Both the position numbers and the translations under genes were made by a program. Source: Leptobrachium leishanense (taxonomy: Eukaryota; Chordata; Amphibia; Anura; Megophryidae). From it: a stretch of 64,000 nucleotides of DNA. Below, piece by piece: positions 2,859-51,347 of the stretch. The stretch covers positions 64,276,637-64,340,636 of the forward strand of contig CM019067.1 in NCBI GenBank assembly GCA_009667805.1, given 5' to 3'. Below the pieces are notes generated by a model. The model was not told where the DNA came from, made no database searches, and worked only from the letters and a program-made list of their open reading frames with translations. Numbering within the stretch: position 1 is the stretch's first letter; every line of letters begins with the position of its first letter.

Positions 2859-4615
2859 AAACATAGAAACATAGAAAAATGTCGGCAGATAAGAACCTTT
2901 CGGCCCATCTAGTCTGCCCAATTACATGGATACTTAACCTGGATTTATCTTTTGTTTAGGATAGCCTTATGCCTATCCCATGCTTGCTTAAATTCAATTA
3001 CTGTTTTGGCCTCTACCACTTCAACTGGAAGGCTGTTCCATGTATCCACCACCCTCTCAGTAAAAAAATGCTTCCTGATGTTACTTTTAAACCTTTGCCC
3101 CTCTAATCTAAGACTATGTCCTCTTGTTTTGCTATTTTGTTTCCTTTTAAATATACTCCCTTCCTCTACCTTGTGGATTCCCTTTACGTATTTAAATGTT
3201 TCTATCATATCTCTTCTGTCTCGTCTTTTTTCGAAGCTGTACATGTTAAGATCATTAAGCCTTTCCTGGTAACTTTTCTCCTTCAAGCCGTACACCATTT
3301 TAGTAGCCCTTCTCTGAACTCTCTCTAAGATGTCTATATCCTTCTGGAGACACGGTCTCCAGTACTGCACACAGTACTCCAAGTGAGGTCTCACCAGTGC
3401 TCTGTACAGTAGCATGAGCACTTCCCTTTTCCTACTGCTAATACCTCTCCCTACACAACCAAGCATTCTGCTAGCATTTCCTGCTGCTCTATTACATTGA
3501 CTACTTACCCTTAGATCCTCTGAAATAATAACCCCTAAATCCCTTTCCTCAGATGTTGAGGTTAGGACTGTATCAAATATTCTATATTCAGCCCTTGGGT
3601 TTTTACGTCCCAGGTGCATTATCTTGCACTTATCCACATTAAAACTCAATTGCCACAGCTCCGACCATTTTTTTAGTTTACCTAAATCATTTGTCATTTG
3701 GCTGATCCCTCCAGGAACGTCAACCCTGTTGCAAATCTTTGTGTCATCAGCAAAATATGACATACCTTTTCCATTAATACCTTCTGCAATATCACTAATA
3801 AAAATATTAAAGAGAATGGGTCCAAATACTGACCCCTGAGGTACCCCACTGGTACCTTGCGCCGAATAAACTCCATTTACCACAACCCTCTGTTGCCTGT
3901 CACTAAGCCACTGCCTAATCCATTCAACAATATTGGAATCCAAGATCAAAGATTGCAATTTATTGATAAGCCTTCCATGCGGAACAGTATTAAAAGCCTT
4001 ACTTAAATCTAAATAAGCAATGTCTACTGCACCACCGGTGTCTGTTATTTTTGTTACCCAATTAAAAAAATCAATAAGATTAGTTTGGCATGATCTCCCT
4101 GAGGTAAACCCATGTTGTTTCTGATCCTGTAATCTATGTGTTTTTAGATGTTCAACAATCCTTTCCTTTAACATGGTTTCCATTAATTTCCCCACTACTG
4201 ACGTAAGACTAACTGGCCTATAGTTCCCCGATTCCTCCCTACTACCCTTCTTGTAAATGGGCACAACATTTGCTAATTTCCAGTCTTCTGGGACGACTCC
4301 TGTTAGCAAGGATTGGTTAAATAAATCTGTTAACAGTTTTGCTATTACATCACTGAGCTCTTTTAATAATTTAGGGTGGATCCCATCAGGCCCCATTGAC
4401 TTATTTGTCTTTACTTTAGACAGCTGCTGTAGAACCTCCTCCTCTGTAAACTGATATGTAAATGTCTCGTTAGTGTTTCCTCCTAACTGAGGTCCCTTTC
4501 CTTCCTTTTCTTCTGCAAAGACTGAACAAAAATATTCATTGAGGCAGTCAGCGAGACTTTTATCCTCTTCTACATACCTTCCTTCCTTTGTTTTTAATCT
4601 AACTAATCCAAGATC
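2859..4615 (-). mobile_element. LINE A with reverse transcriptase ORF, inserted in LINE B
   Basis: A 483-codon frame (4396-2945) begins MGPDGIHPKLLKELS and is open further upstream to about 4615. It holds the reverse transcriptase palm: GNYRPVSLTS, HGFTSGRSC, the catalytic YFADDTK box, and the C-terminal LPVEVVEAKT block. It was probably translated as one pol ORF; endonuclease and ORF1 are missing, so the copy is 5'-truncated. The 3' end is a GAAACATAGAAACATAG tail. LINE B sequence flanks it on both sides and AAATC is present at both edges on the minus strand, a candidate short target duplication. Exact clade within CR1/L2/Rex1 is not decided. Confidence 0.85.
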
Positions 4616-5230
4616 TAAGATTTCCCTAAATCTGTACCTTTTAGAGTATAAATTGCTTGTGTGTTCTTCACTCCAATGTGCATAACGTTACATTTATCTA
4701 CATTAAATTTCATCTGCCATTTAAGCGCCCAGTCCCCCAATCTATCTAAATCCCTCTGCAGCGAAGTAACATCCTGCTCACATTGTATCACTTTCCTAAT
4801 TTTGTGTCATCTGCAAACACTGATACATGACTTTCAATGCCTATCTCAAGGTCATTTATAAATAAATTGAATAGAATTGGTCCTATAACAGACCCCTGAG
4901 GGACACCAATTACCACTGATGTCCATTCTGAAAATGTACCATTATGACCACTCTCTGTACCCTATCTTTTATCCAGTTTTCTATCCAAGAACAAGTATTT
5001 TCATCTAGACCAATTTTTCTTAATCTAAATAGTAACCTATTGTGTGGAACTGTGTCGAAAGCTTTGGCAAAATCTAAGTAAATTATGTCCACTGCGACCC
5101 CCTGATCTATACTTCTACTTACTTCCTCATAGAACGTAATTAGGTTAGTCTGACATGATCTGTGTTTCATAAAACCATGCTGATTTTTGCCAATTACATT
5201 ATACCTCCCAATAAATTCCTGAATATTATA
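4616..5230 (-). mobile_element. LINE B, 5' half: reverse transcriptase fragment
   Basis: The minus strand encodes SCQTNLITFYEEVSRSIDQG, YLDFAKAFDTVPHNRLL (palm), then KFNVDKCNVMHIGVKNTQ. A continuing KDLGIIIDFKLSNN segment appears on the far side of LINE A at about 2840. The order shows one LINE B copy split by the LINE A insertion. Confidence 0.75.
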
Positions 5231-11346: not shown

Positions 11347-11847
11347 GTAAGCAGAGATTGATACCAAGCAAATTGTGATTTAGTCCCTTTGAACTCCCTT
11401 ACATATTTTGATCAATTCAGTGCATTAACCTGTAACACCTGACATATCCTGCGTAAACTGGAATGATTAATGACAGGGAAGAGACAGATGTTTCTGTCAC
11501 TGTTTCATTTAATCTCTCTATGTGCCTGCAGAATGACTGATAAAGATCCCCACCTCTCTCCTCCCTCACTGTAACAAAAGCTTAACAAACGTTACTGCTG
11601 CATTACAGCTGCCAGGGAGAGGGCAGAATACAGGGACATCTCTGGGGTCACTCACTGCTGTATGGGAATAAGATTCAGGCCTTCAGGGGTTATAATTAGG
11701 GATGCACCGATACCACTTTTTTAAGACTGAGTACGAGTACCGATACTTTGTTTCAAGTACTCACCGATACCGAGTACCAATACTTTTTTTATGTCATGTG
11801 ACCGCTTTCCAATAAGATCAGACCTCATATAAAAATTCCGCCAGCTC

Positions 11848-13028
11848 ATGGATATGTCCCCCAGCTTTCATGGATTATGCCCCAGCTCTCATGGATATGA
11901 TCCCACCTCATGGATATGCCCCCTAGCTCATGGATTTGTCCCCCAGCTCATGGATATGCCCCCAGCTCATGGATTTGCCCCAGCTCATGGATATGCCCCA
12001 GCTCATGGATTTGCCCCAGCTCATGGATTTGCCCCCAGCTCATGGATATGCCCCCAGCTCATGGATATGCCCCCAGCTCATGGATTGCCCCAGCTCATGG
12101 ATATGCCCCAGCTCATAGATATGCCCCAGCTCATGGATACTGCCCCAGCTCATGAATATGCCCCAGCACACACGTGGATTTGCCCCAGCTCATGGATATG
12201 CCCCAGCTCATGGATATGCTCCAGCTCATGGATATGCCCCAGCTCACACATGGATATGCCCCAGCTCATGGATATGCCCCAGCTCGCTCATGGATTTTCC
12301 CCAGCTCATGGATATGCCCCAGCTCACACATGGATATGCCCCAGCTCATGGGATATGCCCCAGCTCATGGATTTTCCCCAGCTCACACATGGATATGCCC
12401 CAGCTCATGGGATATGCCCCAACTCACACATGGATATGCCCCAGCTCACACATGGATATGCCCCAGCTCATGGGATATGCCCCAGCTCATGGATATGCCC
12501 CAGCTCATGGGATATGCCCCCAGCTCATGGATTTGCCCCCAGCTCATGGATTTGCCCCCAGCTCATGGATTTGCCCCAGCTCATGGAAATGCCCCCAGCT
12601 CATGGATATGCCCCCAGATCATGGATACTGCCCCAGCTCATGGATATGCCCCAGCTCATGAATACTGCCCCAGCTCACACATGGATTTGCCCAGCTCATG
12701 GATATGCCCCAGCTCACACATGGATTTGCCCCAGCTCATGGATATGACCCAGCTCATGGATATGCCCCAGCTCACACATGGATTTTCCCCAGCTCATGGA
12801 TATGCCCCAGTTCATGGATTTGCCCCAGCTCATGGATTTGCCCCAGCTCATGGATATGCCCCAGCTCATGGATACTGCCCCAGCTCATGGGATATGCCCC
12901 AGCTCACACATGGATTTGCCCCAGCTCATGGGATATGCCCCAGTTTACACATGGATATGCCCCAGCTCACACATGGATATGCCCCAGCTCATGGATATGC
13001 CCCAGCTCATGGATATGCCCCAGCTCAC
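11848..13028. repeat. VNTR, about 18-23 bp unit (AGCTCATGGATATGCCCC)
   Basis: About 60 tandem units with variants of 18 and 19 bp (four or five C) and longer ones with CACACATGG. Because 18 is a multiple of three, long open frames arise in all three forward frames; these are not proteins. The array ends in CAGCTCACCTGG, like the array at 50465. Confidence 0.95.
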
Positions 13029-23369: not shown

Positions 23370-24195
23370 CACGGTTTGGGAATATCTCATGAATGCCTCT
23401 CATCAATGCCTTTATCAGTTTGTGTACCTCAAGGCTCTGTCCTTGGTCCTCTGCTCTTCTCTATCTACACCTCCTCACTGGGCAAAACCATTAACAGCTT
23501 TGGCTTTAATTACCACCTCTGTTCTAATGATACTCAGATCTACCTGTCTACCCCGATCTCTCTCCTCCTGTCCTTTCCAAAGTCAGTGACTGTTTATCTG
23601 GCATCTCCTCCTGGATGGCCTGTCACCACCTAAAGGTTAACATGTCAAAGACCGAGCTCCTACTAATTCCTCCCTCTAATGCCTCCCAGCCTCCTGACAT
23701 CTCTATCATGGTTGATGGTATTACTATCTCCCCATCAAACCAGGTTCGCTGTCTCGATTTACATTTGACTCTGCTCTTTCCTTCATCCCCCACATCCAGT
23801 CTCTTTCCTCCTCCTGCCGCTACCAATTACATATTATTTCCAGAATGCGACCATTTCTTACCACTGACACAACAAAGCATCTCATCCATGCCCTTGTAAT
23901 CTCCCGACTTGACTATTGTAATAATCTTTTAGATGGTCTACCTCTCTCCCGCCTCTCCCCCCTACAATCCATTCTGAATGGCTCTGCCAGGCTCATCCAC
24001 CTCACCCTCACATTTAAGTGATTTTGAGTGTCAGAAGTGGAATTATTTATTTCTTTTGTCTCCCTGGTCTCCCCATCTCCTTAAGTCCAATGTCCTTCTC
24101 CACCTGCTGCTGCTTCAAACACTCCCCATTCCTAGTGACATCTCTCCTCTGACTTTTATGTACCATTCTTTATCTCACCCACACCCTGTAATGTA
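23370..24195 (+). mobile_element. L2-type LINE fragment, reverse transcriptase to C-terminal region
   Basis: Forward-strand frames include [20 protein letters not shown] (palm), then SNDTQIYLS where an active enzyme has ADDTQ, then VDGITISPSNQVRCL. The frame shifts between 23589 and 23640, so it is a pseudogene copy. The same VEGITISPSNQVRCLG block occurs in the L2 at 39487. Confidence 0.82.
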
Positions 24196-30183: not shown

Positions 30184-31825
30184 GTCAGGTCCAGAAATAT
30201 TTGGACATCGACACAATTCTAAGATATTTGGCTCTATACACCACCACAATGGAGTTGGAATGAAACAAACACAATGTGCTTTAACTGCAGACTGTCAGCT
30301 TTAATTTGAGGGTATGTAAATCCAACTCCGGTGAACGGTGTAGGACTTACAGCAGTTTGCAGATGTGCCTCTCACTTGTTAAGGGACCAAAGGTAATGGG
30401 ACAGTATAATAATCATAAATCAAATTTCCCTTCATAACACTTTGTTGCAAATCTTTTGCAGTCAATCACAGCCTGAAGTCTGGCATGCATAGACATCACC
30501 AGACGCTGGGTTTCATCCCTGGTGATGCTCTGCCAGGCCTCTACTGCAACTGTCTTCAGTTCCTGCTTGTTCTTGGGGCATTTTCCCTTCAGTTTTATCT
30601 TCAAGTTAAATGCATGCTCAATAGGATTCAGGTCAGGTGATTGATTTGGCCATTGCATAACATTCCACTTCTGTCCCATCAAAAACTCTTTGGTTGATTT
30701 TGCAGTATGCTTTGGGTCATTGTCCATCTGCACTGTGAAGCACTGTCCAATGAGTTCTGCAGCATTTGGCTGAATGTGAGCAGATAATATTGCCCGAAAC
30801 ACTTCAGAATTCATCCTGCTGCTTTTGTCAGCAGTCACATCATCAATAAATACAAGAGAACCAGTTCCATTGGCAGCCATACATGCCCACGCCATGACAC
30901 TACCACCACCATGCTTCACTGATGAGGTGGTATGCTTAGGATAATGAGCAGTTCCTTTCCTTCTCCATACTCTTCTCTTCCCATCACTCTGGTACAAGTT
31001 GATCTTGGTCTCATCTGTCCATAGGATCTTGTTCCAGAACTGTGCAGGCTTTGTTAGGTGTTGTTTGGCAAACTCTAATCTGGCCTTCCTGTTTTGAGGC
31101 TCACCAATGGTTTACATCTTGTGGTGAACCCTCTGTATTCACTCTGGTGAAGTCTTCTCTTGATTTTTGACTTTGACACAGATACACCTACCTCCTGGAG
31201 AGTGTTCTTGATCTGGCCAACTGTTGTGAAGGGTGTTTTCTTCACCAGGGAAAGAATTCTTTGGTCATCCACCACAGTTGTTTTCCGTGGTCTCCCGGGT
31301 CTTTTGGTGTTGCTGAGCTCACCGGTGCGTTCCTTCTTTTTGAGAATGTTCCAAACAGTTGTTTTGGCCACGCCTAATGTTCTTGCTATCTCTCTGATGG
31401 GTTTGTTTTGTTTCTTCAGCCTAATGATGGCTTGCTTCACTGATAGTGACAGCTCTTTGGATCTCATCTTGAGAATTGACAGCAACAGATTCCAAATGCA
31501 AATAGCACACTTGACATGAATGCTGGGCCTTTTATCTGCACATTGTAATTGGGGTAATGAGGTAATATCACACACCCGGCCATGGAACAGCTGAGAAGCC
31601 AATTGTCCCATTACTTTTGGTCCCTTAACAAGTGGGAAGCACATCTGCAAACTGCTGTAAGTCCTACACCGTTCACCTGAGTTGGATGTACATACCCTCA
31701 AATTAAAGCTGACAGTCTGTAGTTAAAGCACATTGTGTTTGTTTCATTCCAACTCCATTGTGGTGGTGTATAGAGCCAAAGATGTTAGAATTGTGTCGAT
31801 GTCCCAATATTTCTGGACCTGACTG
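30184..31825 (-). mobile_element. Tc1/mariner transposon with ~220-bp inverted repeats
   Basis: Inverted repeats 30184-30404 and 31604-31825 begin AGTCAGGTCCAGAAATATT and remain similar over about 220 bp. TA-rich sequence flanks both sides, though the exact TA duplication is blurred. It contains one transposase reading region on the minus strand. It lies in the intron 39 bp after the S5 exon donor. Confidence 0.93.
30413..31467 (-). pseudogene. Tc1-family transposase, broken by one frameshift
   Basis: About 350 residues, the usual length for Tc1 transposase. The N-terminal part (from MRSKELSLSVKQAIIRLKKQ at 31467) has the paired-type helix-turn-helix (REIARTLGVAKTTV) and the GRPRK AT-hook linker. 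The C-terminal part has the DDE domain: WTDETK, then DNDPKHTAKS and [12 protein letters not shown], spacing D34E. A single-base frameshift followed by a stop at 31075 separates the two parts, and the second frame continues to 30413. All three catalytic residues are present. Excision-integration activity would need another source of enzyme. Confidence 0.92.
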
Positions 31826-32142: not shown

Positions 32143-32439
32143 CACTGGTGGCCAAAATTGTGGATGCATCTTACTTTCTTAATGTTATTGCTGTTTCTCT
32201 TTTCTTTGGTGACCAGTCTGACCTTTTGATTGACGGTATCGTTAATTTCTACAAATATAGTTATTTAAGTACATTTTAGGTCAAAACAGCACAATATTAT
32301 TTTAATTTATTTAATTATTCTAATATAATTTTAAAAAATACATAAAATGGAAAATAGTTTTCTAAGCTCGATATAGAATTGTAGGCATTGCAACTAGAGT
32401 CTCTGTTATGCATCATAATGCTTTATTCTGATCAAGAAA

Positions 32440-33114
32440 TGTTACCGGAATCTGCTAGGTTCACTCGGGACGAGGCCGGACCGGACATGAGCAAGGATTG
32501 TCTGAACACGAGTCTCTTCAGGAAAGGCAAACTTTATTGTGTCATCACACAGAATGCTCACACAGGATTGAATCGCAAAGAGTGAGCCCTGAACTCACCC
32601 CGACAAGGGGTTTTATACCCCAAATACATAATTAGGTACATCCCAACTAGCCCACCTCCCGGTGACACTATCCCACCCCACGTGGGTTAGTACCTCCCTT
32701 GGTCGATTACAAAGACATTCCATACATTGACCATAAATTGGCAAACTTCATGTTAGTTTGACAGAAAGTGATTTGCTGCTACGCTCAATCCGGCCTGTGC
32801 CCACCTCCCTAGAGCCTGCTTATTTGTTGAAGATAAGACCTGGTCTGTTTTCTACGTTCTTCTTTGTCTCGCTGTAGGCCTCTGTGACCTTGGTGTATCC
32901 ATTTGTCATCCTGTCCCTCCGTGCCAAGAGCAGCCCGGATCTTCCTCAATTTTAATTGCTTCTCTGCTAATCTAACACATTCCTAAAATTCTTTGTAAGC
33001 TTCATTCTAGTTTCTACTGAAATCTACCTAGTTATTTTCAAGTGAACCAATATTCTGAACAAGATGGCCGCCTGGCTCATAATGGCGACCATCTTCCAGC
33101 CTGATTCCACTTCA
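32440..33114 (-). repeat. 3' LTR
   Basis: 675 bp, on the minus strand TGAAGTGGAATC ... CGGTAACA. It could extend to 32434, because CAAGAAA is shared with the other copy beyond the CA end. An AATAAA-type signal would be read as tttatt on the plus strand (32532-32537). Confidence 0.93.
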
Positions 33115-33126
33115 TTCCCCCCTTGG
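33115..33126 (-). promoter_or_regulatory. Polypurine tract
   Basis: On the minus strand CCAAGGGGGGAA lies immediately upstream of the 3' LTR, as expected for the plus-strand primer of reverse transcription. Confidence 0.9.
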
Positions 33127-33207
33127 CTCAAGCCTCAGGTTCTTTTCCTGATGCTTGTAGCCATCACACCCCACTAGTGTTATTCTTGAGTTCCTCATAC
33201 TTTAGGG

Positions 33208-33391
33208 CAGTGGTCCCCATCCCAGGCCCTCAGGGCCCACTAACAGGCCAGGTTTGCCAGATATCTGAAGCACAGCACAGGTGTTATGATTTGCTGCTCA
33301 GTGATTGCAGGATTCAGTCTGCATTTCCCCAAGGTGATCTGCAAAATCTGGCCTGTTAGTGGGCCCTGAGGACCAGGGTTGGGGACCACTG
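33208..33391. mobile_element. hAT MITE (CAGTGGTCCCCAWCC), copy 2, inside the retrovirus
   Basis: 184 bp, ends CAGTGGTCCCCATCCC / TTGGGGACCACTG, perfect 8-bp duplication CTTTAGGG (33200-33207 and 33392-33399). Closely related to 14487-14672. It lies between env and the polypurine tract and so postdates the provirus. Confidence 0.95.
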
Positions 33392-33399
33392 CTTTAGGG

Positions 33400-34002
33400 G
33401 ACCTATTTTTGTTGGGAACATGTCTTGTGGGATAATCAGTGGTATATTTTGTGTCTGTGTGGGTGTCAGTGCTCTCTTGCATAGTGGCCATAGACATAGC
33501 CCTATGCGGTACGTCAGTGTCCCTACGACCAAGATCACCACCACCATAAGAATCATGGATCCAATCTGTGAGATAAATCTCAGAATGGATCCAAACCACT
33601 CTCCGATTGCTCCGAACCCACGGAGTGGATTCCAGCCTTCAGCAGCGATCCTCCTTGCTGTGTTCTGTAACTGTGCTACCTTCTCCTGGTGATCTTGGAT
33701 TACCTGGTAATAGTCAGGGACATCATGTGTAGTGTTCCTGATGAAGGTGCAACATTCATAATGCATTGTCATTTCACACAATCCAGAGCCGCACTGATCT
33801 GTTCCAGTGCCATATCATGTATCATTTGTACCTTTCGTATTTCTCGTACTTCCAGATTCAGCAGCTATATATCCATACTAGTCTTGTTCAAAATCTCATC
33901 CATCAAACTGGCATAACTGTTCATTCTTACCATCAACTCTCTTCCCCATCCAGTCCATGCCGGCAGCCACGCCCATATTCGATCTGCATTCTTGAACAAC
34001 TC
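33400..34002 (-). pseudogene. env: env, transmembrane subunit (broken)
   Basis: The TM region follows the RQKR cleavage site in the SU entry. The first ~45 residues are in the SU frame and stop at 33865; the rest is in another frame (33781 downwards). Visible parts are a cysteine motif read here as CX7CC (one residue longer than the usual gammaretroviral CX6CC), NTT glycosylation, and a membrane span within SMILMVVVILVVGTLTY followed by a short cytoplasmic tail. A frameshift lies between 33865 and 33781. The reading frame runs on into the hAT MITE, so the natural stop is uncertain. Confidence 0.85.
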
Positions 34003-34944
34003 TCTCTTCTGTCTTTCAAACACCAGTGGGTACCTAGGGTGGAGTGCTGTGTCTGTATTAGTGTCTTCTCCCCTTACCCTCTGAATTGGGATCAATTTAG
34101 CCAGATAACACATTCCCGTTATTGTTGGTGGTACCCATGTGTAACACACCTTTCCACAACACACCTGGTACCCCCCTTTCAATATAAATGGTGACAAGTG
34201 TAGTGTTCCCTTTGCTATCTCTATCATCAGTTGTCTCAGTCGTTTCATCATATCCAGTGCACTCTGCCTCCCATTTGTCACATTCGCAATCACCTCTTTC
34301 TGATCACTTGTGAGCTTTCTACATCGTATGTATAGAAAATTTGACTGCTCCTTTGTGTTAAAGGTGTAAATGTATGATGTCCAATTGAACTTACTTGAAT
34401 AACACCCTCCACCCTTGTTATTTGATTCCCTATCTGGTCCTAGTTGAAAGCACCATTCTGGTGGGTATACTGGCCCTATTATGGGGTACCCGGGACTGAA
34501 TGATTCTGGTTTTTCTCTTGGTGCATCGAAAGCATGTATTGTGACATTCCCTGATGCAAACATGCTCAAATTCATTGGAACAGAGGCAAATGGTATGTGG
34601 ATTGTCTCTGGGTGCAACCTACTACACACCCAGCATGCGGTTTGCCCGGACTTCTTAGCATAGTCATATTTAAATTGCACAAGTAAATGTCCTCTTGGCA
34701 AAATTTCGGACGTCGCCTCTCGCTTTTGTCTCCACATAGTACGATTCTCCATCACCGGGTGCGTACCATTCCAGATATGGGAGATATCCACTTTCTTGGT
34801 GGTGCTTGGACACCTGGGGCATACTCCATGCGAGAGTCCATAAATCAAGTTTGCAAGGTACAAAATCAGTACCACAAATGCCCCAAATGTCAAAATCCCT
34901 TGGGCAATTCTCTTCACAGTCACATAAACCCAATCCCTCCCCAC
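34003..34944 (-). CDS. env: env, surface subunit (SU)
   Basis: Receptor-binding part of the viral envelope; the frame is open from 34944. Residues ~13-36 are a hydrophobic signal/anchor segment. There are N-glycosylation sites at about residues 59, 67, 124, 133, 187 and 221, and a CWVC motif at 104-107 of the kind that links SU to TM in gammaretroviruses. A furin-type RQKR at 311-314 marks the SU/TM boundary. A second RQKR at 72-75 suggests a separately cleaved leader. SU is short, about 310 residues including the leader. No similarity to a particular named virus can be claimed. Confidence 0.88.
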
Positions 34945-35116
34945 CGGAATTTAAAAAAAAAAAGACATTTCTGGTTGATCAAGGGTGGGGGCTGGGCCCC
35001 TAAAAAGCACCCTTGGGGTATCCCCCTGCTGGTGGATAGTCAGGCCTTATTGTGTCCATCAAAACACCCACTTGTGAAATCATTTGGGTGCTTTCAGTTG
35101 GATCATTCAGACGCTC
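34945..35116 (-). other. pol-env spacer
   Basis: It contains an A-run (tttttttttt on the minus strand near 34953-34962) and no coding signal. Possibly near the env splice acceptor. Confidence 0.4.
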
Positions 35117-36324
35117 ACGGCTGTGGTCTTTGTCAGCTTTAGCCTCAGTGGATTGGTCTCGTTGGTGACGACCTTCCATGCTGGTTCAGGACTGGCTGCA
35201 GCTACTTTCAGTCTGGAGTGATGTATCCACGGGACCACCTCGGCAACCTTTACTGCTGTAGGGGTTGATAACAGGACAAGGTAAGGACCTCTCCACTTTG
35301 GGCCTAGTGGGTCATTTTTCTACTCTTTCAGCCATACTGAGTCACCTGGACAATACTTATGCAGTGGGGGATATAAAAAGTGAGGTATATTATCTCCCAC
35401 CCAGGTATTCAATTTCTGCATTGATTTACCTAACAGTACAACCTGATCATTTAGTTTAGTTTCTCCCAATGCCCGAAGGTCCCCCCTTAGTCCACTAATC
35501 AGAGGGGTAGGCCATCCAAACATAAGTTTGTACGGACTTAGCTTCAATTGGGGGGTTGGCCTGCACCTAATGTGCAATAGGACTATCGGCAGCACATCCA
35601 ACCAGCCTAGTGACGTCTCTTGGCACAGTTTGGACATCAAAGTCTTTAGGGTGCGGTTCATTCTCTCGACTTTTCCCGAGCTCTGGGGCCTGTAAGCAGT
35701 ATGTAGCTTCCAGGTGATGCCCAACAGGCGGGCAAGCTGTTGTAAACAGTTCTGTATGAATGCAGGGCCATTGTCCGACCGTATCTCGAGAGGAAGTCCA
35801 TAGCTTGGTATTATTTCATTCATCAGACTCTTCACCACTTCCACAGTCTTTTCTGTTCTTGTTGGGAAAGCTTCCACCCATCCTGTCATAGTACACACCA
35901 TTACCAGTAGATATTTGTATCCTTTGCAGGGCGGCAACACTGTGAAGTCTATCTGTAACGATGCCATTGGGGATAGCCCGATTGGCTGCTTCCCTGGAGG
36001 TTGAGATGGGCCTGTTCTTGGGTTATTTTTGGCACATGTCACGCACTGCTGGGCTATTGCTTTGCAGACTACTGACAGTCCTGGTACGTAGAAATGTGGC
36101 TCCAATTGTTGTTCCATCATTTCTCTTCCGCCATGGGTACTTGCATGGAGCGTTCTTACAATCTCAGGAGCCAATGTTGCTGGTAGGACTATTTGTCCAT
36201 TCTTTAACTGCAACCATCCATCTTCTCCATATCCGCCTTGTTCCTCCGATAGCCATTTCTTCTTTTTCTCTGAATATACGGGTGTCCATTCACTCAGTGG
36301 CGCCAGTAGGAGTGCAGCCACCAC
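35117..36324 (-). pseudogene. pol: pol: integrase
   Basis: Joins the DNA copy to the host chromosome. The frame from 36348 shows the N-terminal zinc-binding module (HAST-H ... C-VTC), the catalytic triad in QIDF, RSDNGPAF and GKVERMNR with D35E spacing, and the SGKVERMNRTLK block. A TAG at 35320-35322 interrupts the C-terminal domain; the same frame then continues with WRGPYLVLL and PTAVKV, typical of the gammaretroviral integrase C-terminus, to a stop near 35117. Upstream it is contiguous with the OGFr domain with no visible boundary. Confidence 0.92.
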
Positions 36325-36962
36325 TGGTTTTGCTTTGTATCGTGCCAATTCTCCATGGTTTCCCCAGACAAATTCTTCTTTTGGGAAATAGTATCGCCAT
36401 GCAAAGAACAGCAGATCTTGTCTGTCCTGTGAATCTCTTACTGCTGGTATGAAAAGTTCATTGCACTTTTTTTCAATCTTGTCAGTTTGTTTTTGATAAG
36501 GATCTCCTTGAGGAAGAACCTCACCAACGGGGCTTGGTATTCTTCTGCTCCCAACTCTCCCAAACTTAGCAGTATTCGTGTAATCCGTAGATTATTATGA
36601 GGGTTGGTTGTTAGATTTTCGAAACGTGAAGCGAAATTTTCTGCTCGTTCAACTTCGGTTACTTTTGTATCTTCTTCACACTCCCCCATTAATTTTACGC
36701 CGAAGAATTTCAGCATCATTTTGTATGCTCTGCGTAGTCTTTGCCGAACTTCTGAGGTGTTGATCATTAGGCGTGTCTCTTGAGGATTCAGAGGAGTGGA
36801 GTAGAAATTTCGGCCTTGAGACTGGGTTGGGAAAAGCCATTGGATATAATCATGATTGAGTTCTAATAGTTCATAATCATCTTGCCATTTGTGCAATATA
36901 ATTTCGATGAACTCGCCTTTGGGTTCAAATTTTCTCCAATTCATGTAGAATTCGTAGTTTGG
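36325..36962 (-). pseudogene. pol: captured OGFr (opioid growth factor receptor) conserved domain
   Basis: About 212 residues between RNase H and integrase. Diagnostic stretches are YEFYMNWRKFEPKGEFIEII, DDYELLELNHDYIQWLFP, NNLRITRILLSLGELG, YQAPLVRFFLKE and, after a frame change, LLFFAWRYYFPKEEFVW. Host OGFr proteins have the same blocks in the same order (NHSYIQWLFP, NNLRITRILKSLGELG, QAPLVRFFLEE, from memory). OGFr is a vertebrate nuclear-envelope-associated protein that binds met-enkephalin and restrains growth; the role in a virus is unknown. The domain is in frame with RNase H (same open frame from 37235). One apparent single-base loss in a T-run near 36450 shifts the last third, which then continues into integrase. 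No introns, as expected from RNA-level capture. Confidence 0.9.
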
Positions 36963-37455
36963 CATGGGAGGTTGAGGCTCTTGCTTGCAGAGCAGGACTT
37001 TGGCTTGATCAATTGTTAGCAATGGTTTTGCAGCTGCTTTTGCGGCCTGGTCAGCGCGCCTGTTGCCTTTTGGGATTTCATCATGACCTTTCTGGTGGCC
37101 ACGACAGTGCATGATACTCACAGCACTTGGTTTCCATACAGCTTCTAGGAGGGCTGCGATTTCTTGCTGCATACTTGATTTGTTGTCCTGAGGAAGTAAG
37201 TAGTCCTCTTTCTTTGTAGAGTGCACCATGTGCATGGACCGTCATGAAAGCGTACTTGGAGTCAGTGTAGATATTCACTCTTTTGCCTTCGGAGATTTCT
37301 AGAGCCCTGGTTAGGGCTGTTATTTCAGCCAGTTGTGCAGATGTATGGCCTGGTAGTGGATTTGCTTCCATAATTTCTTCTGCTGAGACAACTGCATAGC
37401 CGGAGACTTTCTTCCCATCATCCATATAACTGCTACCATCGGTGAATATCTGTAG
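36963..37455 (-). pseudogene. pol: pol: RNase H
   Basis: Degrades the RNA strand during reverse transcription. Active-site blocks: FTDGSS (about 37446), SAQLAEITALTRAL, YTDSKYAF, and the C-terminal GNRRADQAAKAAA at about 37060-37020. A frameshift near 37200 separates the two halves. After about residue 75 of the lower frame a 17-residue linker leads directly to the OGFr domain. Confidence 0.92.
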
Positions 37456-38790
37456 ATCGTATTTGTCTAGGGGTACATCTTTCAAATCTGGCCTGCTACT
37501 GAACACTTCTTCCATCACTTGGAGGCATTCATGATCTGGATCCTCTTCACAATCAGGCAGTAAAGTAGCAGGGTTCAAGGTAGTGATGAGGTACAAATGA
37601 ACCCGTGGATTCTCACACATCATAGCTTGGTACTTTGTCATCCGGCTGTTGCTGAACCAGTAGCTTCCCTTTACATCCAGCAGGGCTTTGACAGCATGGG
37701 GCACCTTGACATGAAGAACTTGTCCAAGGGTCAGCTTGTCTGCTTCTGCTATCAGCATTGCGGTGGCTGCCACGGCTTTCAGGCATGGGGGTAGGCCACA
37801 GGCCACAGGGTCAAGTTGCTTGGAGAGATAGGCCACAGGCCTTAGCCAGGAGCCAAAACTCTGAATCAGCACTCCTGTCACTATTTGATTGTGTTCATGC
37901 ACTTACAGCTGGAAGGGCTTGCTGTGATCTGGCAGTCCCAGTGCAGGAGCTCCATTAACAGAGTCTTTAATTTTAGGAAAGCTGCTGTTTGCTCTTCTTC
38001 CCAGAGGAAGGGGTCATGCTCTCCTCCTTTGGTGGCTTGATGGAGGGGCTTAGCAATATCTGCGAAGTTGGGGATCCACAGGCGGCAGAAGCCTGCAGCT
38101 CCCAGAAACTCACAGACTTGTCTTCTGGTCTTTGGTTGGGGTATTCGGCATACTGCTTCTTTTCTTTCTGCCCCCAATGCACGCTTGGTACCTGTTAATT
38201 GAAAACCTAAATATTTCACAGTCTGTTTGCATATTTGTGCCTTTTTTTTAGATACTCTGTAACCTGCAAGGCATAGTAGATGTAGCAGGGCTTTTGTGGC
38301 AGATAAACAGTCTTTTTCTGTGGGAGAAGCCAGTAATAAATCATCTACATACTGTAGTAAAACAACTCTGTCTGGCTGAGCGTTGAAGGACAGGAGGTCC
38401 TGGCTTAGCGCGCACCTGAAAATCGTGGGCGAGTTTTTGAAACCTCGAGGAAGCCGTGTCCAGGTCATCTGGTGGCATGCTCCTGTGGTAGATTCCTCCC
38501 ACTGAAATGCAAAAAGGGGCTGGCTTGCTGGAGCCAGTCGGATGCAAAAGAAAGCGTCTTTTAAATCAAGCACCGTGTAATATTTTGTATCTCCGGGAAT
38601 TAATGCCAATAAATTGTATGGGTTGGGGACCACAGGGTGTAGAGTTACTGTGGCTTCGTTGACGCTCATAAATCTTGGACTGGGCGGTATTCTTGTGTGC
38701 CCTCTTTCAGTACTGGCAACAGGGGTGTGTTCCACGGTGACACGCAGAATTTCAATATGCCGTGGTCTTTAAGTCTCTGTAAATATGTCT
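37456..38790 (-). pseudogene. pol: pol: reverse transcriptase
   Basis: Copies the RNA genome into DNA. Motifs: LDLKDAFFCIRL, LPRGFKNSPTIF, the catalytic YVDD at about 38351-38340, VKYLGFQLTG, and the connection region AYLSKQLDPVA. The frame changes near 38670-38735 and again near 37890, so no intact enzyme can be made. The N-terminal end is fused to the protease frame, as expected for a pro-pol polyprotein. Confidence 0.93.
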
Positions 38791-39486
38791 GGATATTCTG
38801 CTTGGCTTTTTGTGGGATATGATATTGTCTCAAAGCCACAGGCGTTGCACCAGGTTTTAAATCGACGTACACTGGAGGGATATTTACCGCTAGTCCGGGC
38901 GGGTTTTCCTCCGCCCACACCCCAGGAATTCCCAGAAGTAGTGTGTACGGATCTGGGTCGGCCGGCAGAGTTGGTGCCGTGTGCCATTCTTCTTCTCTTG
39001 GCATAATTACTGCAATTTTGACAGGTTGGGTGTGCTGGCTGGCTGGGCTGTACTGCCGTGTAGAGCTGCCACTCTCAGGCAGGTCTAATCGAGCATGTCC
39101 CCCGGGAAGAAATGTAATTTGGGCTTGCAATTTGCAAAGGATATCCTGCCCCAGGAGCTGGATGGGACATTCGGGCATATACAAAAATTCATGTTCAACA
39201 TTATGCCCACCCACACTACATTTTCGAGAAGCAAGGAAGGAGCACTTAGCGGACACCCCCATTGCTCCCATAATATCAACTTCATTTCCCATTGGGGGTG
39301 CAATTTGCTGTGTTACAACAGAATATTCGGCACTGGTGTCAACCATAAAAATTTCATCTTTATTTCCCACTCTCATAGTGACCGTGGGCTCGTGCTTACC
39401 GAGCGGGATGGGCCCAGGTCCTTGTCAATATGTACCTTGCCCCTCAAATGACGTTCCCGCCAACCCCACGAACCCTGCACCGGCAC
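38791..39486 (-). pseudogene. pro: pro: retroviral aspartic protease
   Basis: Cleaves Gag-Pol. The frame from 39376 contains the active-site block as FMVDTSAEY (DTS where DTG is usual; both occur in aspartic proteases), and LLGQDIL near the C-terminal end of the domain. Upstream the frame continues in 39377-39480 but carries a TGA at about 39425. The start is cut off from gag by the L2 LINE. Confidence 0.85.
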
Positions 39487-40394
39487 AATTATTATTATTT
39501 ATTATTATTCTTTATTTATAAAGCGCCAGCATATTCCGCAGCGCTGTACAATAAGCACAGTATAGACAGGGTTACAATACGTTGAACAACATTTGACAAA
39601 CAGTACAGGAGGAGATGAGGGCCCTATTCCCGTAGGAACTCACAATCTGGGAGGGTTGGGGTTGGAAACAGGAGGAGAGGACTGTAAGGTGAGAGTGATT
39701 GATGGTTGCGTCAGTGAGTTGGGTGGTAGGCTTCCCTAAATAGGAATGTTTTCAGGGAGCGTTTGAAGGAAGAGAAGTTAGGGGAAAGTCTGACAGCACG
39801 AGGGAGAGCGTTCCAGAGAGTGGGGCTGCGCGTGAGAAATCCTGCAGTCTATCATGGGAAGAGGTGATGCGGGGAGAAGCTAGGCGCAGGTCACTGTTTG
39901 ACCTTAGGGAGCGGGCTGGGGTGTATTTGGTGATTAGTGAGGACAGGTAGTGGGGAGCTGAGTTAGTGAGGCTTTTGTAGGTAAGGCTAAGGATTTTGAA
40001 CTTAATTCTGCAGTGGATGGGGAGCCAGTGAAGGGGACTCGCAGAGGGGAGCGGCAGAGACAGAGCGGCGGGTGAGGTGAATTAGCCTGGCGGAGGCGTT
40101 CAGGATGGATTGTAGGGGGGAGAGGTGGGACAGAGGGAGGCCAGATAAGAGATTATTGCAATAGTCGAGTCGGGAGATTACCAGGGCGTGTATGAGTTGT
40201 TTTGTGGCGACAGCGGTAAGAAATGGCCGAATTCTGTAAATATTACGCAGTTGGTATCGGCAGGAGGAGGAAAGAGACTTGATGTGGGGGATGAAGGAAA
40301 GAGCAGAGTCAAGTGTAACTCCAAGACAGCGAACTTGGTTTGATGGGGAGATGGTGATACCCTCCACCGTGATCGAGAAGTCAGGAGAAGTCAT
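39487..40394 (-). mobile_element. L2-type LINE fragment inserted at the gag/pro junction
   Basis: The 3' tail (attattatttattattattc, then tttataaagcgccagcata) is at the left edge. The minus strand encodes VEGITISPSNQVRCLGVTLD, SSSCRYQLRNIYRIRPFL and SRLDYCNNLLSGLP, the L2 pol C-terminal region. It is 5'-truncated. The retroviral gag frame resumes at about 40395, so the LINE is younger than the provirus. Confidence 0.9.
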
Positions 40395-42166
40395 ATCTGC
40401 CGTTTGTTACCTGGCCATTGGAGGCTTGACCTCCCGATTCCCCAGCCTCCCCCTGCACCCCAAATTTAGCCAAAAATGCAGGACAATCATTTTTCCAGTG
40501 ACCCTCACCTCGGCACCAGGCGCACTGGTTGGGTCCCAGGGGTTCCCTAGGGGCACCCCTACCTCTGCCTCCCCTAGCCCTTGCTCTCCCTGTCCGGGGC
40601 ACCTCTCCCTCCATTTCCCATATAACCGACCACACCCGTATGCCCTTTCTGTCTCCTTATCTCCTCCCATTTTTCTTCCAGATCCCGGTTATGATACACT
40701 TTATTAGCAATTTCTACCAACTCGCTAATACCTTTTCCTAAGAACCCATCTAGTCTCTGTATTTTATTCCGTATGTCTCTTTGTGATTGACCCACAAAAG
40801 AAGAATTGATTAACCTCTGATTCTCCACTGCCTCAGGGTCAATAGTATATAGGATATACATCCTATAGGATATAGGATATACATCCTATATGCATCTAGT
40901 AACCTTTCTAGAAATGCACTTGGGGATTCTTTAGATTCTTGTACAATATCCGCTATTTTCCCCATGTTTGTGGGTTTCTTCCCTCCCACTTTAACACCCA
41001 TTATCACCGCTGTATGGTACGTCTGTAGGTGAGCAATACCGTCAACAGTATTGTATGGCCATTTGGGATCTGTTTTGGGGTAATGCTCCTCTGCCCATGC
41101 TTCTGGCTGGGGCTTAGCATCTTCTACAGCTTGGGCAAGTAGAATTTTCCGCGCGCTACTATTTATTCGGGCTCTTTCCTCAGTAGTGAACATTGTCAAC
41201 ATTAGTTGCTGACAATCTGCCCATGTGGGGTTATGTGTAAGCATGACTGACTCTATCATACTGACTGACTCTATCATACTTGCCACTGCCGCGGGATTAG
41301 TGGAGTACAGTGGTGTGTGCGTTTTCCAGTTAAATAGGAATGGGACATATGTGTATTGTACTGGACCAGGTGCTCCATTCTCTAGTAAAGGACCTGGCAC
41401 CTCCTGCAGAGGCATTTGCATCTTACTTTTGTTGGGATTGTGCTGATATGGTTCTCAGGGTTTATATATATTGTTCGCTGTGCGAGCAGTGGCCCCTTGT
41501 TTTACATCTTCACTCTCATCATCACTGTCCTCTTGGGATACTAATTTATATACGCTCCCATCGGGCATCTCGATTTTTCCTGGTGGGACCTCTCTGTCTC
41601 CTCCACCCGCTGCCCCCTGGTCTTCCTCTGCAATACCGCGTGGCGGAGCGAAGGGAGCTGGCCGGGAAGTAGAAGCTGCCTGCTCCCCCCTCTCCGCCCG
41701 CGGCACTCAAAGCTTCTCTAGCTGCCCCATAACACGATGGATAGGGCGGGGGCAGGGAATCAATCTCCTCCAGATGTTCTACCAACACTGGTTTCCCTTT
41801 TTCATCATTATATTCTTTATTTGGGGGTGCCTGTTTCTTGTTTTGCCCCGCCATCATTATAAAATGACTTTTATCTTTTACACAATACCTCCATATATCT
41901 ATATATGGGTACTGTTCAGGATGTCCGCATTTCCCGGTGACTTGGGAATGCACTTTCTGTATTAACTCCGGGTCCATTGACCCCTGCTCTGGCCACTCTG
42001 AAACCAACAGTGGCCATACAATTGTACACATTAATGTTAGTTTCTCCTTAGTTAACTCTACACCATAATCATGCGTTGCATATAGCGCTTCAAAATTCTG
42101 CACCATATACCCTAAGGGCGTCTCACCCTTCTTCACCTTCTTGGGTTTGGACGACCCGTTACCCAT
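40395..42166 (-). pseudogene. gag: gag (matrix, proline-rich, capsid, nucleocapsid)
   Basis: Structural polyprotein. The start is ATG at 42166 with MGNGSSKP, an N-myristoylation context. Matrix follows, then a PPPY late-domain motif (DSLPPPYPS) near 41745. Capsid (41421-40810) has FNWKTHTPLYS and the QESKESPSAFLERLLDAYR major homology region. Nucleocapsid has one zinc knuckle CAWCRGEGHWKNDC (CX2CX4HX4C) near 40530. Damage: a frameshift near 41700, a break near 41440, an 18-bp duplication (41242-41277) and a duplicated 30-bp block (40850-40890) that shifts the frame after the homology region. Confidence 0.9.
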
Positions 42167-43218
42167 TGTTACTCTTAAGGGCAGTAACCTTTTTACAATA
42201 CAGATATTACTTTTTAGCAAAAACACTTGAAATTTACTGTCTGGTACTTCAGTCAACAATTCATATATATCGGATTCGCTTCCTCCGTCAGTAGCCGGAC
42301 TGCAGTCGCCTGAGCTGGAAACGTACCTTGGGAGTCCACGCTCAAGTTTGCTTTCTCGCTAGGCGAGTAGGCGCTCAATCACTCACAGCACGTACTTGTA
42401 CCAGATACTTTCAGCACAAAACAATACATAAACAATTCTACTCTCTCTTCTAGCCGAGGGCACGCTGTCCCTCCTCTTGGCTCCTTATACCCAATTGATT
42501 GAACTCTACTCTTGTCTGCTTGTGACTATGTGCACCCTGTTCTATAACAACACTCCCGTCTGCAATTCCAATTTGCCTATGGGTAATCTACCCACCCAGC
42601 ACCACTACCGCTGCAGCTACCGCTGACCTCAATTGGCCCCCTTCACTACACGACGTACACACTAGCACTGACTCAGGGCTCTCAGCCCAGTCACAGAAAT
42701 CCCTCCTCCTTTTCTTGTCCACGTGCAGAAGCTCTGTTTACAAACATTGACTACAACTATGCAACTCCACGTGGCTACCCTCTCCCTCTTTTATAGAATT
42801 ATCCTTTAGTTAACATCTGATCCCCCGGGTCCAGACACGCGCTAGCCACTCTGGCTCTTTTGCTTGTCCGTGCTTTCGGCGGTGGGTTCAGTATGTCAAC
42901 GAGACCGTGGCCGCGGGTCTCCTTATCCAACTATGGTCGGACGTTTCCCTTATACCGGTATCTCTGATACACATACAAACATAGAAGACACTTTACCTAT
43001 CGCCGCGCTGCTCGCTGTTTCCTCAGACTCGGTGGAGTCCCAGCTTCCCGGGCCGGGGGTCCGTTTGGGACGAGACGAGGTCCACTGAACAGGAAATCCT
43101 GCTTGGCGCCTGCAGATGTCAGCTCACCTTCAACGGACGCCCAACCGACGGGATCACTCGCACCTGCAGTCAACCGCCACAGTGTTCAGCAGTCGTTGCC
43201 GTGCCGGCAAGGGCCCGT
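42167..43218 (-). other. Retroviral 5' leader
   Basis: About 1.05 kb between primer site and gag start. Likely holds the packaging signal and env splice donor. Neither could be located with confidence; no ORF stands out. Confidence 0.6.
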
Positions 43219-43236
43219 ATCCCGGACGAGCCCCCA
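43219..43236 (-). promoter_or_regulatory. Primer-binding site, tRNA-Pro type
   Basis: On the minus strand TGGGGGCTCGTCCGGGAT, the 18-nt proline tRNA complement typical of gammaretroviruses, lies five bases after the CA end of the 5' LTR. Confidence 0.95.
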
Positions 43237-43241
43237 AGAAA

Positions 43242-43916
43242 TGTTACCGGAATCTGCTAGGTTCACTCGGGACGAGGCCGGACCGGACACGAGCAAGGAT
43301 TGTCTGAACACGAGTCTCTTCAGGAAAGGCAAACTTTATTGTGTCGTCACACAGAATGCTCACACAGGATTGAATCGCAAAGAGTGAGCCCCGAACTCAC
43401 CCCGACAAGGGGTTTGATACCCCGAATACATAATTAGGTACATCCCAATTAGCCCACCTCCCGGTGACACTATCCCACCCCACGTGGGTTAGTACCTCCC
43501 TTGGTCGATTACAAATACATTCCATACATTGACCGTAAATTGGCAAACTTCATGTTAGTTTGACAGAAAGTGATTTGCTGCTACGCTCAATCCGGCCTGT
43601 GCCCACCTCCCTACAGCCTGCTTATTTGTTGAAGATAAGACCTAGTCTGTTTTCTACGTTCTTCTTTGTCTCGCTGCAGGCCTCTGTGACCCTGGTGTAT
43701 CCATTTGTCATCCTGTCCCTCCGAGCCAAGAGTGGCCCGGATCTTCCTCAATTTTAATTGCTTCTCTGCTAATCTAACACATTCCTAAAATTCTATGTAA
43801 GCTTCATTCTAGTTTCTACTGAAATCTACCTAGTTATTTTCAAGTGAACCAATATTCTGAACAAGATGGCTGCCTGGCTCATAATGGCGACCATCTTCCA
43901 GCCTGATTCCACTTCA
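43242..43916 (-). repeat. 5' LTR
   Basis: 675 bp, same boundaries as the 3' LTR and about 97.5% identical by eye. It would contain the U3 promoter. Right border TTCA against atactac. Confidence 0.93.
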
Positions 43917-44178
43917 ATACTACAACATATACACAATAATATACAAACGAAAATTGGCAAAATTCCTCACCTTTTCACCAGCTAGCTTTCGGTCAATAAT
44001 TTTCAGTAAATCTGCTCAAATTAACTCAAAACGTGTATCAAATGTTGTCAAAAATATTTTGCTTACAATTTGCATAGAATAGCTAATGTCTAGAAGTAAA
44101 AAACAAGGGGGTAAGTAAAGATATCAACCAAAACTGACAAAATCAGAAGGTGTATCCACAATTTTGGCCACTTGTGTA

Positions 44179-50464: not shown

Positions 50465-51347
50465 AGCTCACACATGAATTTGCCCCCAGCTCAAGGATTT
50501 GCCCAGCTCATGGATTTGCCCCCAGGTCATGGATTTGCCCAGCACATGGATTTGCCCCCAGCTCATGGATTTGCCCAGCACATGGATTTGCCCCCAGGTC
50601 ATGGATTTGCCCAGCACATGGATTTGCCCCCAGCTCATGGATTTGCCCCCAGGTCATGGATTTGCCCAGCACATGGATTTGCCCAGCTCATGGACTTGCC
50701 CCCAGGTCATGGATTTGCCCCCAGCTCATGGATTTGCCCCCAGGTCATGGATTTGTCCAGCACATGGATTTGCCCAGCTCATGGATTTGCCCAGCTCATG
50801 GATTTGCCCAGCACATGGATTTGCTCAGCTCATGGATTTGCCCAGCTCATGGATTTGCCCCCAGGTCATGTATTTGCCCAGCTCATGTATTTGCCCCCAG
50901 GTCATGGATTTGCCCAGCACATGGATTTGCCCAGCTCATGGATTTGCCCCCAGGTCATGGATTTGCCCAGCTCATGGATTTGCCCCCAGGTCATGGATTT
51001 GTCCAGCACATGGATTTGCCCCAGCTCATGGATTTGCCCCAGCTCATGGATTTGCCCCCAGGTCATGGATTTGCCCAGCACATGGATTTGCCCCCAAGCT
51101 CATGGATTTGCCCCCAGGTCATGGATTTGCCCCCAGGTCATGGATTTGCCCAGCTCATGGATTTGCCCCCAGGTCATGGATTTGCCCCCAGGTCATGGAT
51201 TTGCCCAGCACATGGATTTGCCCCCAAGCTCATGGATTTGCCCCCAGGTCATGGATTTGCCCCCAGGTCATGGATTTGCCCAGCTCATGGATTTGCCCCC
51301 AGGTCATGGATTTGCCCCCAGGTCATGGATTTGCCCCCAGCTCTCAC
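50465..51347. repeat. VNTR, 17-19 bp unit (AGCTCATGGATTTGCCCC)
   Basis: About 48 units in three types, AGCTCATGG, AGGTCATGG and AGCACATGG, each followed by ATTTGCCC(CC). The ordering includes a higher-order duplication (51070-51180 repeats at 51190-51300). It ends in CAGCTCTCACCTGG, as does the array at 11848. The long frames in all three phases are not genes. Confidence 0.95.

What the first reader, a model, noticed from the sequence alone, without database searches (positions are those of the whole stretch)
36325..36962. OGFr (opioid growth factor receptor) domain captured inside a retroviral pol
Between a clear RNase H (GNRRADQAAKAAA) and a clear integrase (D35E), the pol reading frame holds about 212 residues with the successive blocks of the OGFr conserved domain: NHDYIQWLFP, NNLRITRILLSLGELG, QAPLVRFFLKE and the FAW..F.PK..FVWG end. 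The first two thirds are in the same open frame as RNase H; the last third is separated only by an apparent one-base loss. So the domain was part of the viral polyprotein and not a later insertion. It is complete and intron-free. Some lentiviruses carry dUTPase at exactly this place in pol, so the site may tolerate an extra module. I know of no described retrovirus with an OGFr domain but cannot check the literature. Function is open: the host protein binds met-enkephalin and restrains cell growth.
Basis: partly seen in the sequence, partly recalled or inferred. Interest (0 to 1): 0.96.

Follow-up and report, generated by a model that had tools for sequence, protein, structure and literature searches.

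The report
Host growth-receptor domain inside retroviral pol
In a toad genome (likely Leptobrachium leishanense) a large family of endogenous retroviruses carries, between the RNase H and integrase parts of its polymerase gene, an intron-free copy of a domain of the host's own opioid growth factor receptor; it was probably captured once from a spliced host message, it evolves as a constrained protein, and it would likely act in newly infected cells as an extra virion protein.

Summary
Confirmed. The minus strand of 32433-43916 is a gammaretrovirus-like provirus with two 682-bp LTRs. Its pol holds a near-complete OGFr_N domain (Pfam E = 6.4e-60) between RNase H and integrase. It is no accident of one copy. 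All 48 loci taken from the same genome by OGFr score have integrase directly after it. All 40 close relatives taken by integrase have the domain or its 3' end directly before it. Of 150 scored copies, 27 lie in open frames of 1000 codons or more. Relatives in lizards, snakes and a caecilian join RNase H to integrase without it. The viral domains form one clade, sister to the toad's own OGFR. The host gene has introns there; the viral copies do not. dN/dS is 0.12-0.23 outside the closest pairs. Residues shared with bacterial and phage OGFr proteins are kept. Some copies have 99-100% identical LTRs. Nine literature searches showed no description. The function is inferred: likely a virion-delivered module of the early phase, at the dUTPase site of non-primate lentiviruses.

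The parts
32433..43916 (-). Provirus, gammaretrovirus-like, LTR to LTR, defective; has a LINE-like insert (identity recalled) between gag and protease
   Evidence: LTR pair, domain order and frames
43235..43916 (-). 5' LTR (682 bp), followed by a primer-binding-site-like TGGGGGCTCGTCCGGGAT (tRNA-Pro type, recalled)
   Evidence: 97.5% identical to the other LTR, 17 mismatches, no gaps; ends read
32433..33114 (-). 3' LTR (682 bp), preceded by polypurine tract AAGGGGGGAA
   Evidence: no target-site duplication seen for this copy
40813..41454 (-). gag, capsid part (Gag_p30)
   Evidence: Pfam PF02093 E 6.1e-40
38669..39424 (-). protease
   Evidence: Pfam RVP E 1.2e-11
37884..38768 (-). reverse transcriptase
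   Evidence: Pfam RVT_1 E 3.2e-25
36966..37902 (-). RNase H, in two frames (37084-37902 and the first part of 36441-37241)
   Evidence: Pfam RNase_H E 8.6e-16 and 7e-8
36325..36965 (-). captured OGFr_N domain, first about 170 residues in the RNase H frame, the rest in the integrase frame
   Evidence: Pfam PF04664 E 6.4e-60 and 5.7e-5; limits by tblastn
35110..36324 (-). integrase (H2C2 zinc domain, catalytic core, C-terminal part)
   Evidence: Pfam rve 8.2e-18, Integrase_H2C2 6.5e-10; P0209 tblastn 36564-35110
33868..34950 (-). env, surface part: CWVC motif, RQKR site, N-glycosylation sites
   Evidence: motif scan; no Pfam hit
33115..33867 (-). env, transmembrane part in another frame, with CX6CC and a hydrophobic stretch
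   Evidence: frame translation, read by eye

Best explanation
A gammaretrovirus-like lineage carries, between RNase H and integrase of its pol frame, an OGFr_N domain that was probably copied once from a spliced OGFR messenger RNA of a Leptobrachium-line host, and the domain is likely delivered in virions as part of the Pol products and would act early in the newly infected cell. Shown: position, open fusion frames, one clade next to host OGFR, absence of the host's introns, low dN/dS, near-identical LTR pairs. Inferred: translated as part of Gag-Pol and packaged; set free at the two flexible linkers by the viral protease, or left as a tail on reverse transcriptase or integrase; target and effect. 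My committed mechanism, at about 0.35 on its own, is that the module uses the host receptor's route to the nuclear envelope and nucleus to help the integration complex reach chromatin. The 'what it is' part stands at about 0.97; the confidence below is for the whole statement.
For: Pfam E 6.4e-60. Fusion in single public proteins and 27 of 150 scored genome copies in frames of 1000 codons or more. Integrase after OGFr in 48 of 48 loci (44 distinct places), some RNase H before it in 45 of 48 (in L014 only 18 residues, in L016 about 1.3 kb away). OGFr or its 3' end before integrase in 40 of 40 integrase-picked copies. One clade of 54 viral rows (100/99), sister to the toad's own OGFR (100/98), Pelobates OGFR next, the four true OGFRL1 rows behind a 100/100 branch. 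Host gene broken by introns within the domain. OGFr-less relatives with a plain RNase H-integrase joint, and an integrase tree with the OGFr lineage nested among them. dN/dS 0.12-0.17 in all bins with dS above 0.05 for OGFr-picked copies, 0.23 for integrase-picked ones. Host-invariant columns kept 54/63 and 56/62 against 57/143 and 52/134 elsewhere; seven residues universal in 13 bacterial, IMG/VR and phage sequences and in animals all kept in 39 of 44 viral copies. Model: compact helical domain (pLDDT 91.7) between low-confidence linkers. LTR pairs up to 100% identical. Host OGFr is reported at the nuclear envelope and to enter the nucleus (PMC5876317, passages); dUTPase occupies this site in non-primate lentiviruses (PMC4531489, passages).
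Against: No transcript, protein or particle was examined. Protease sites were not mapped. The domain is less constrained than integrase, and in the integrase-picked sample 20 of 40 copies have a stop in it (scattered places; 14 of the 24 single-frame copies), more than RNase H shows (4 of 30, shorter piece); so a strict need for it in the youngest subfamily is not shown. In the closest pairs dN/dS is 0.41-0.42 (few pairs). Nothing tests the nuclear step: the viral copies lack the host protein's C-terminal part and I tested no nuclear localisation signal. Bacterial and phage OGFr proteins show that the domain did not arise for opioid or nuclear work.
Confidence: 0.5

Rival explanations
1. Growth-control decoy: the domain competes with host OGFR for its ligand or partners, lifts the host's restraint on cell division and so supplies dividing cells, as other captured growth genes do.
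For: Activation of host OGFR prevents proliferation (PMC10668855, passage); replication-competent retroviruses with captured growth genes exist, src in RSV and cyclin homologues in WEHV (PMC4299795, passage); simple gammaretroviruses need dividing cells (recalled).
Against: Those genes are separate reading frames; a Pol module is made in small amounts (recalled). No ligand binding was tested for this domain.
Confidence: 0.25
2. Ancient enzymatic or binding activity: the domain keeps the original biochemical job of OGFr_N proteins, still unknown, and serves reverse transcription as dUTPase does.
For: Seven residues invariant across 13 bacterial, IMG/VR and phage sequences are all kept in 39 of 44 viral copies; stand-alone OGFr_N proteins occur in bacteria, a 595-kb phage record and IMG/VR contigs and one in a marseillevirus model; same site as lentiviral dUTPase.
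Against: I know of no enzymatic activity for the family, and no solved structure matched by sequence or fold beyond background.
Confidence: 0.2
3. Tolerated passenger: the linker site accepts a folded domain that does nothing; frame and fold are kept only so that integrase is translated and Pol does not misfold.
For: dN/dS of OGFr (0.23) is higher than of RNase H (0.16) and integrase (0.08) in the integrase-picked sample; stops are frequent there.
Against: dN/dS is far below 1 and the kept positions are those of the host and bacterial family, polar ones included; two lineages 56-57% identical in the domain both keep it.
Confidence: 0.15
4. Host OGFR retrocopies that happen to lie in ERVs, or an assembly artefact.
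For: Many database entries are labelled as OGFr proteins only.
Against: Same neighbours in the 48 + 40 loci sampled from many contigs, long open fusion frames, one clade.
Confidence: 0.01

Closest known systems
dUTPase module in pol of non-primate lentiviruses
   Same: Extra folded domain in the same pol frame at the same place, between RNase H and integrase (PMC4531489, passages).
   Different: dUTPase is an enzyme; ERV1-class elements are listed as lacking it (PMC4299795, table seen). OGFr_N is unrelated and comes from a growth regulator of this very host line.
Host-gene capture by crocodilian ERVs (KIT-ligand in CrocERV29, nectin3 in CrocERV31)
   Same: Host messenger RNA taken into an ERV family, purifying selection reported, origin in the host lineage (PMC4299795, passages).
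   Different: KIT-ligand is a separate frame between pol and env and nectin3 replaces env; here the host piece is fused inside the Pol polyprotein and both neighbours are kept.
Replication-competent retroviruses with captured growth genes (RSV src, WEHV cyclin homologues)
   Same: Host growth-control gene carried without loss of viral genes (PMC4299795, passage).
   Different: Separate genes that promote growth; here a domain of a growth-restraining protein within pol.
OGFR and OGFRL1 of vertebrates
   Same: The captured domain is OGFr_N from OGFR.
   Different: About host residues 69-277 in the common lineages (alignments often start at residue 25-36, over the linker; not examined); the C-terminal part is absent; 51% identical to the toad's own domain.
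OGFr_N proteins used by parasites and other viruses (Meloidogyne MiISE6; marseillevirus LCMAC202 protein)
   Same: OGFr_N domain in a parasite or virus (PMC5876317, passages).
   Different: Not retroviral polyprotein modules; their origin was not tested here.

Membership tests
OGFr_N domain (PF04664) | Score above the curated cut-off over most of the profile | tested here: met
   202.7 bits against a cut-off of 22, profile 6-171, rest in the next frame
OGFr_N domain (PF04664) | Residues invariant across bacteria, phages and animals | tested here: met
   All seven polar/aromatic ones kept in 39 of 44 viral copies, six in 4, five in 1
Full OGFR receptor | Complete protein including C-terminal part | tested here: not met
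   Domain is followed directly by integrase
Full OGFR receptor | Binds met-enkephalin | not testable with these tools
   needs a binding assay
Gammaretrovirus-like (class I) ERV | Gag p30 capsid family | tested here: met
   PF02093 E 6.1e-40
Gammaretrovirus-like (class I) ERV | 4-bp target-site duplication (PMC4299795 table) | tested here: inconclusive
   ATAC, ACGG and ATAT read by eye from the flanks of three of nine related LTR pairs, the other six not resolved; none seen for the window copy
Gammaretrovirus-like (class I) ERV | Integrase groups with class I ERVs; MLV-type integrase C-terminus (PF18697, name recalled) | tested here: met
   Tree of 28 rows; PF18697 precomputed for P0209. Class of the neighbours is recalled
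Gammaretrovirus-like (class I) ERV | Covalent SU-TM type env (CXXC in SU, CX6CC in TM) | tested here: met
   CWVC in 33868-34950 and a CX6CC in the next frame; meaning of the motifs recalled
Captured host gene | Host introns absent | tested here: met
   Host domain in at least five segments on C12; viral copies contiguous
Captured host gene | Viral copies nest with the host's own gene | tested here: met
   100/98 sister to L. leishanense OGFR; 95/81 in the smaller set
Lentiviral-dUTPase-like Pol module (works like) | In frame between RNase H and integrase | tested here: met
Lentiviral-dUTPase-like Pol module (works like) | Set free by the viral protease and packaged | not testable with these tools
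   only low-confidence linkers on both sides in the model
Lentiviral dUTPase (member of) | dUTPase domain | tested here: not met
   Pfam finds OGFr_N and no dUTPase in the stretch

The most novel reading that the evidence does not exclude
A retrovirus lineage turned a domain of its host's growth-restraining receptor into a standard part of its Pol polyprotein, kept it through a long radiation up to recent activity, and uses it in the virion core to steer the infected cell's nucleus or cell cycle: a new Pol module of host origin.
Probability: 0.4. Interest if true: 0.95.

Novelty: new variant of a known kind. Interest (0 to 1): 0.87.

Why it matters
Host-gene capture by retroviruses is known mostly as oncogenes or separate frames, usually at the price of viral genes. 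Here a host regulatory domain sits inside the Pol polyprotein with its neighbours kept, with one apparent origin, an ordered set of lineages and the donor gene still present in the same genome. That makes two open questions directly testable: how a host messenger becomes an in-frame Pol module, and what the OGFr_N domain, which also occurs in bacteria and phages and for which I found no solved structure, really does. It also warns that gene-family counts of OGFR in this toad may be inflated by ERVs.

Full report
What is there. The minus strand of window 32433-43916 is a provirus with two LTRs of 682 bp that differ at 17 places. The order is gag (Gag_p30), protease, reverse transcriptase, RNase H, OGFr_N, integrase, env. 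A tRNA-Pro-like primer site (identity recalled) follows the 5' LTR and a polypurine tract precedes the 3' LTR. The env pieces show CWVC, RQKR and CX6CC. The copy is dead: RNase H, the OGFr domain and env are each broken by frame changes, and a LINE-like stretch (identity recalled) lies between gag and protease.

The OGFr domain. Pfam OGFr_N is hit with E = 6.4e-60 in the frame that starts in RNase H, and its end with E = 5.7e-5 in the integrase frame. The match runs over 36325-36965.

The organism. The top rows of the protein searches are all from Leptobrachium leishanense. Its OGFR gene gives 31 of 31 identical residues in one segment and 98% over 53 in another, 83-93% in most others. I take it to be this toad or a near relative.

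A family, not one copy. The genome search had 5871 first-look candidates for OGFr_N, of which 150 were scored, all above the cut-off. Counting from that list, 133 of the 150 have no stop in the match, 27 lie in open frames of at least 1000 codons and nine in frames of exactly 1440. I took 48 loci (44 distinct places) by OGFr score, mostly ones without stops. Integrase follows in 48 of 48. Some RNase H precedes in 45 of 48: none was found for L018, L019 and L039, only 18 residues in L014, and in L016 it lies about 1.3 kb away. To avoid picking by OGFr, I searched with the window's integrase: 37,748 first-look candidates, 123 scored, one of them the window. Of the other 122 I read the 40 with even ranks 2 to 80. 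OGFr is at least 90% complete in 36; in the other four 23 to 98 residues of its 3' part adjoin integrase and no RNase H was found. None lacks it. All 40 are close kin of the window copy (94-97% in integrase), so this tests the young subfamily only. Public proteins show the fusion in one frame, for example P0209 (882 aa, 49 member sequences) and P0121; these are gene predictions.

Gain, not ancestral. ERV pol proteins of Anolis, Thamnophis, Sceloporus, Podarcis, the caecilian Rhinatrema and unnamed contigs join RNase H to integrase with a short linker and no OGFr (one row, P0253, was cut at a wrong place there and is not used). In an integrase tree of 28 rows the OGFr lineage is nested among such elements, next to Pelobates fuscus P0212 (89/79) and P0217 (97/95). 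P0212 lacks the start of integrase, so it does not show the joint; P0217 does. Whether OGFr-less kin exist in the same genome did not complete.

Origin. In a tree of 74 domain rows all 54 viral rows form one clade (100/99), sister to the two OGFR rows of L. leishanense (100/98), with Pelobates OGFR outside; the four true OGFRL1 rows are far off, while two frog rows annotated as OGFRL1 (P0193, P0296) fall on the OGFR side. The smaller tree agrees with weaker support (95/81). Old branches (L014, L018, L019, L026, P0042) keep pieces like the host protein's N-terminal part ahead of the domain (in L018 one piece lies 1.3 kb away). So a longer piece was probably taken in and later trimmed. The host gene on C12 shows residues 32-286 in at least six tblastn segments; one intron of 108 bp has GTAAGT and TTCAG ends. 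Viral copies run through these places, so a spliced message is the likely source.

Constraint. Pairwise NG86 dN/dS for 43 OGFr copies is 0.12-0.17 in every bin with dS above 0.05, and 0.42 in the four closest pairs; RNase H gives 0.07-0.22 in bins above 0.05, integrase 0.09-0.22. Those copies were picked by OGFr score, which favours conserved ones. In the integrase-picked set OGFr gives 0.23 (24 single-frame copies), RNase H 0.16 (30) and integrase 0.08 (40), the last lowered by the picking. In that set 20 of 40 copies have a stop in OGFr (no position shared by more than three) and 14 show more than one frame segment. The most likely reading is decay after insertion, but the stop rate is above that of RNase H (4 of 30, shorter piece), which speaks for weaker constraint than on the enzymes. 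Between the two main lineages identity is 69% in RNase H, 56-57% in OGFr and 78% in integrase. Positions invariant in 36 animal sequences are kept at 54/63 and 56/62, others at 57/143 and 52/134 (Fisher 5e-10 and 2e-12). Seven residues that are universal in 13 bacterial, IMG/VR and phage sequences and nearly so in 38 animal rows are all present in 39 of 44 viral copies.

Recent activity. For ten copies with long frames I fetched the LTR sides only. Nine gave a pair: 97.1, 99.7, 99.1 (227 bp only), 99.9, 100 (640 bp), 99.0, 97.4, 99.4 and 99.3% identity; one gave none. The 99.4% pair belongs to a copy nearest the second lineage (L033). No substitution rate was measured, so I give no years.

Structure. 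A model of P0001 shows a compact OGFr part between linkers with pLDDT under 50. The window's own piece (174 residues) models at pLDDT 91.7, helical but for two short strands. No solved fold matches beyond background. The one clear match among viral models is a marseillevirus protein already called opioid growth factor receptor.

How it likely works. Shown: an in-frame, constrained module at the place where non-primate lentiviruses keep dUTPase (PMC4531489, passages). From this it follows, as inference, that it is made with Gag-Pol and reaches the target cell in the virion. The host protein is reported at the outer nuclear envelope and to enter the nucleus, and a nematode effector with OGFr_N enters plant nuclei (PMC5876317, passages). 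I therefore favour help to the integration complex at the nuclear envelope or in the nucleus, at about 0.35. Growth-control decoy (0.25) and an ancient, unknown biochemical activity (0.2) are close rivals; a mere passenger is less likely (0.15).

Novelty. Host capture into ERVs is known (KIT-ligand between pol and env, nectin3 in place of env, PMC4299795, passages), and so is an extra Pol module (dUTPase). A host regulatory domain fused inside Pol did not show up in my nine library searches. I file it as a new variant of a known kind.

Noticed in passing
L001:7926-8426 (uncultured phage LR756511.1, 595 kb): A stand-alone OGFr_N protein of 167 aa in a huge phage record (Pfam E 5.5e-26); the domain is not specific to animals.
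   Followed up: partly
L002-L013: Further OGFr_N relatives in six bacterial contigs (two Chlamydiae, Chitinophagaceae, Phenylobacterium, Roseomonas, one unplaced) and in six IMG/VR contigs; function unknown.
   Followed up: partly
UniRef entries of Leptobrachium leishanense: Many proteins named as OGFr-domain proteins of this toad are ERV pol pieces, so gene-family counts of OGFR may be inflated.
   Followed up: partly
L014, L018, L019, L026 upstream of the OGFr start: Old copies keep stretches like the host OGFR N-terminus (for example DSWDEEEE in L026), signs of a longer first capture.
   Followed up: partly
window 11841-13027 and 50473-51343: Two tandem arrays of related short units (CCAGCTCATGGATATGCC and CATGGATTTGCCCCCAGCT), with long open frames by repetition.
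   Followed up: no
window 39752-40406: LINE-like stretch (recalled from its frames) inside the provirus between gag and protease; part of it (40070-40387) has an 86% identical copy at 23691-24007 on the other strand.
   Followed up: no
window 631-1467 and 2855-3692: Direct duplication of about 838 bp at 97% identity, beside a 580-codon LINE-like open frame (recalled) at 2948-4687 minus.
   Followed up: no
window 30416-31722 minus: Tc1-like transposase frames (recalled from the translation).
   Followed up: no
window 32429-32432 and 43917-43920: No target-site duplication was seen around this provirus although some related copies show one; it may be a recombinant.
   Followed up: no
P0020 (Clarias magur), P0230 (Sycon), P0255 (Mercenaria), P0264 (Ruditapes): Host proteins with two OGFr_N-like stretches in tandem.
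   Followed up: no
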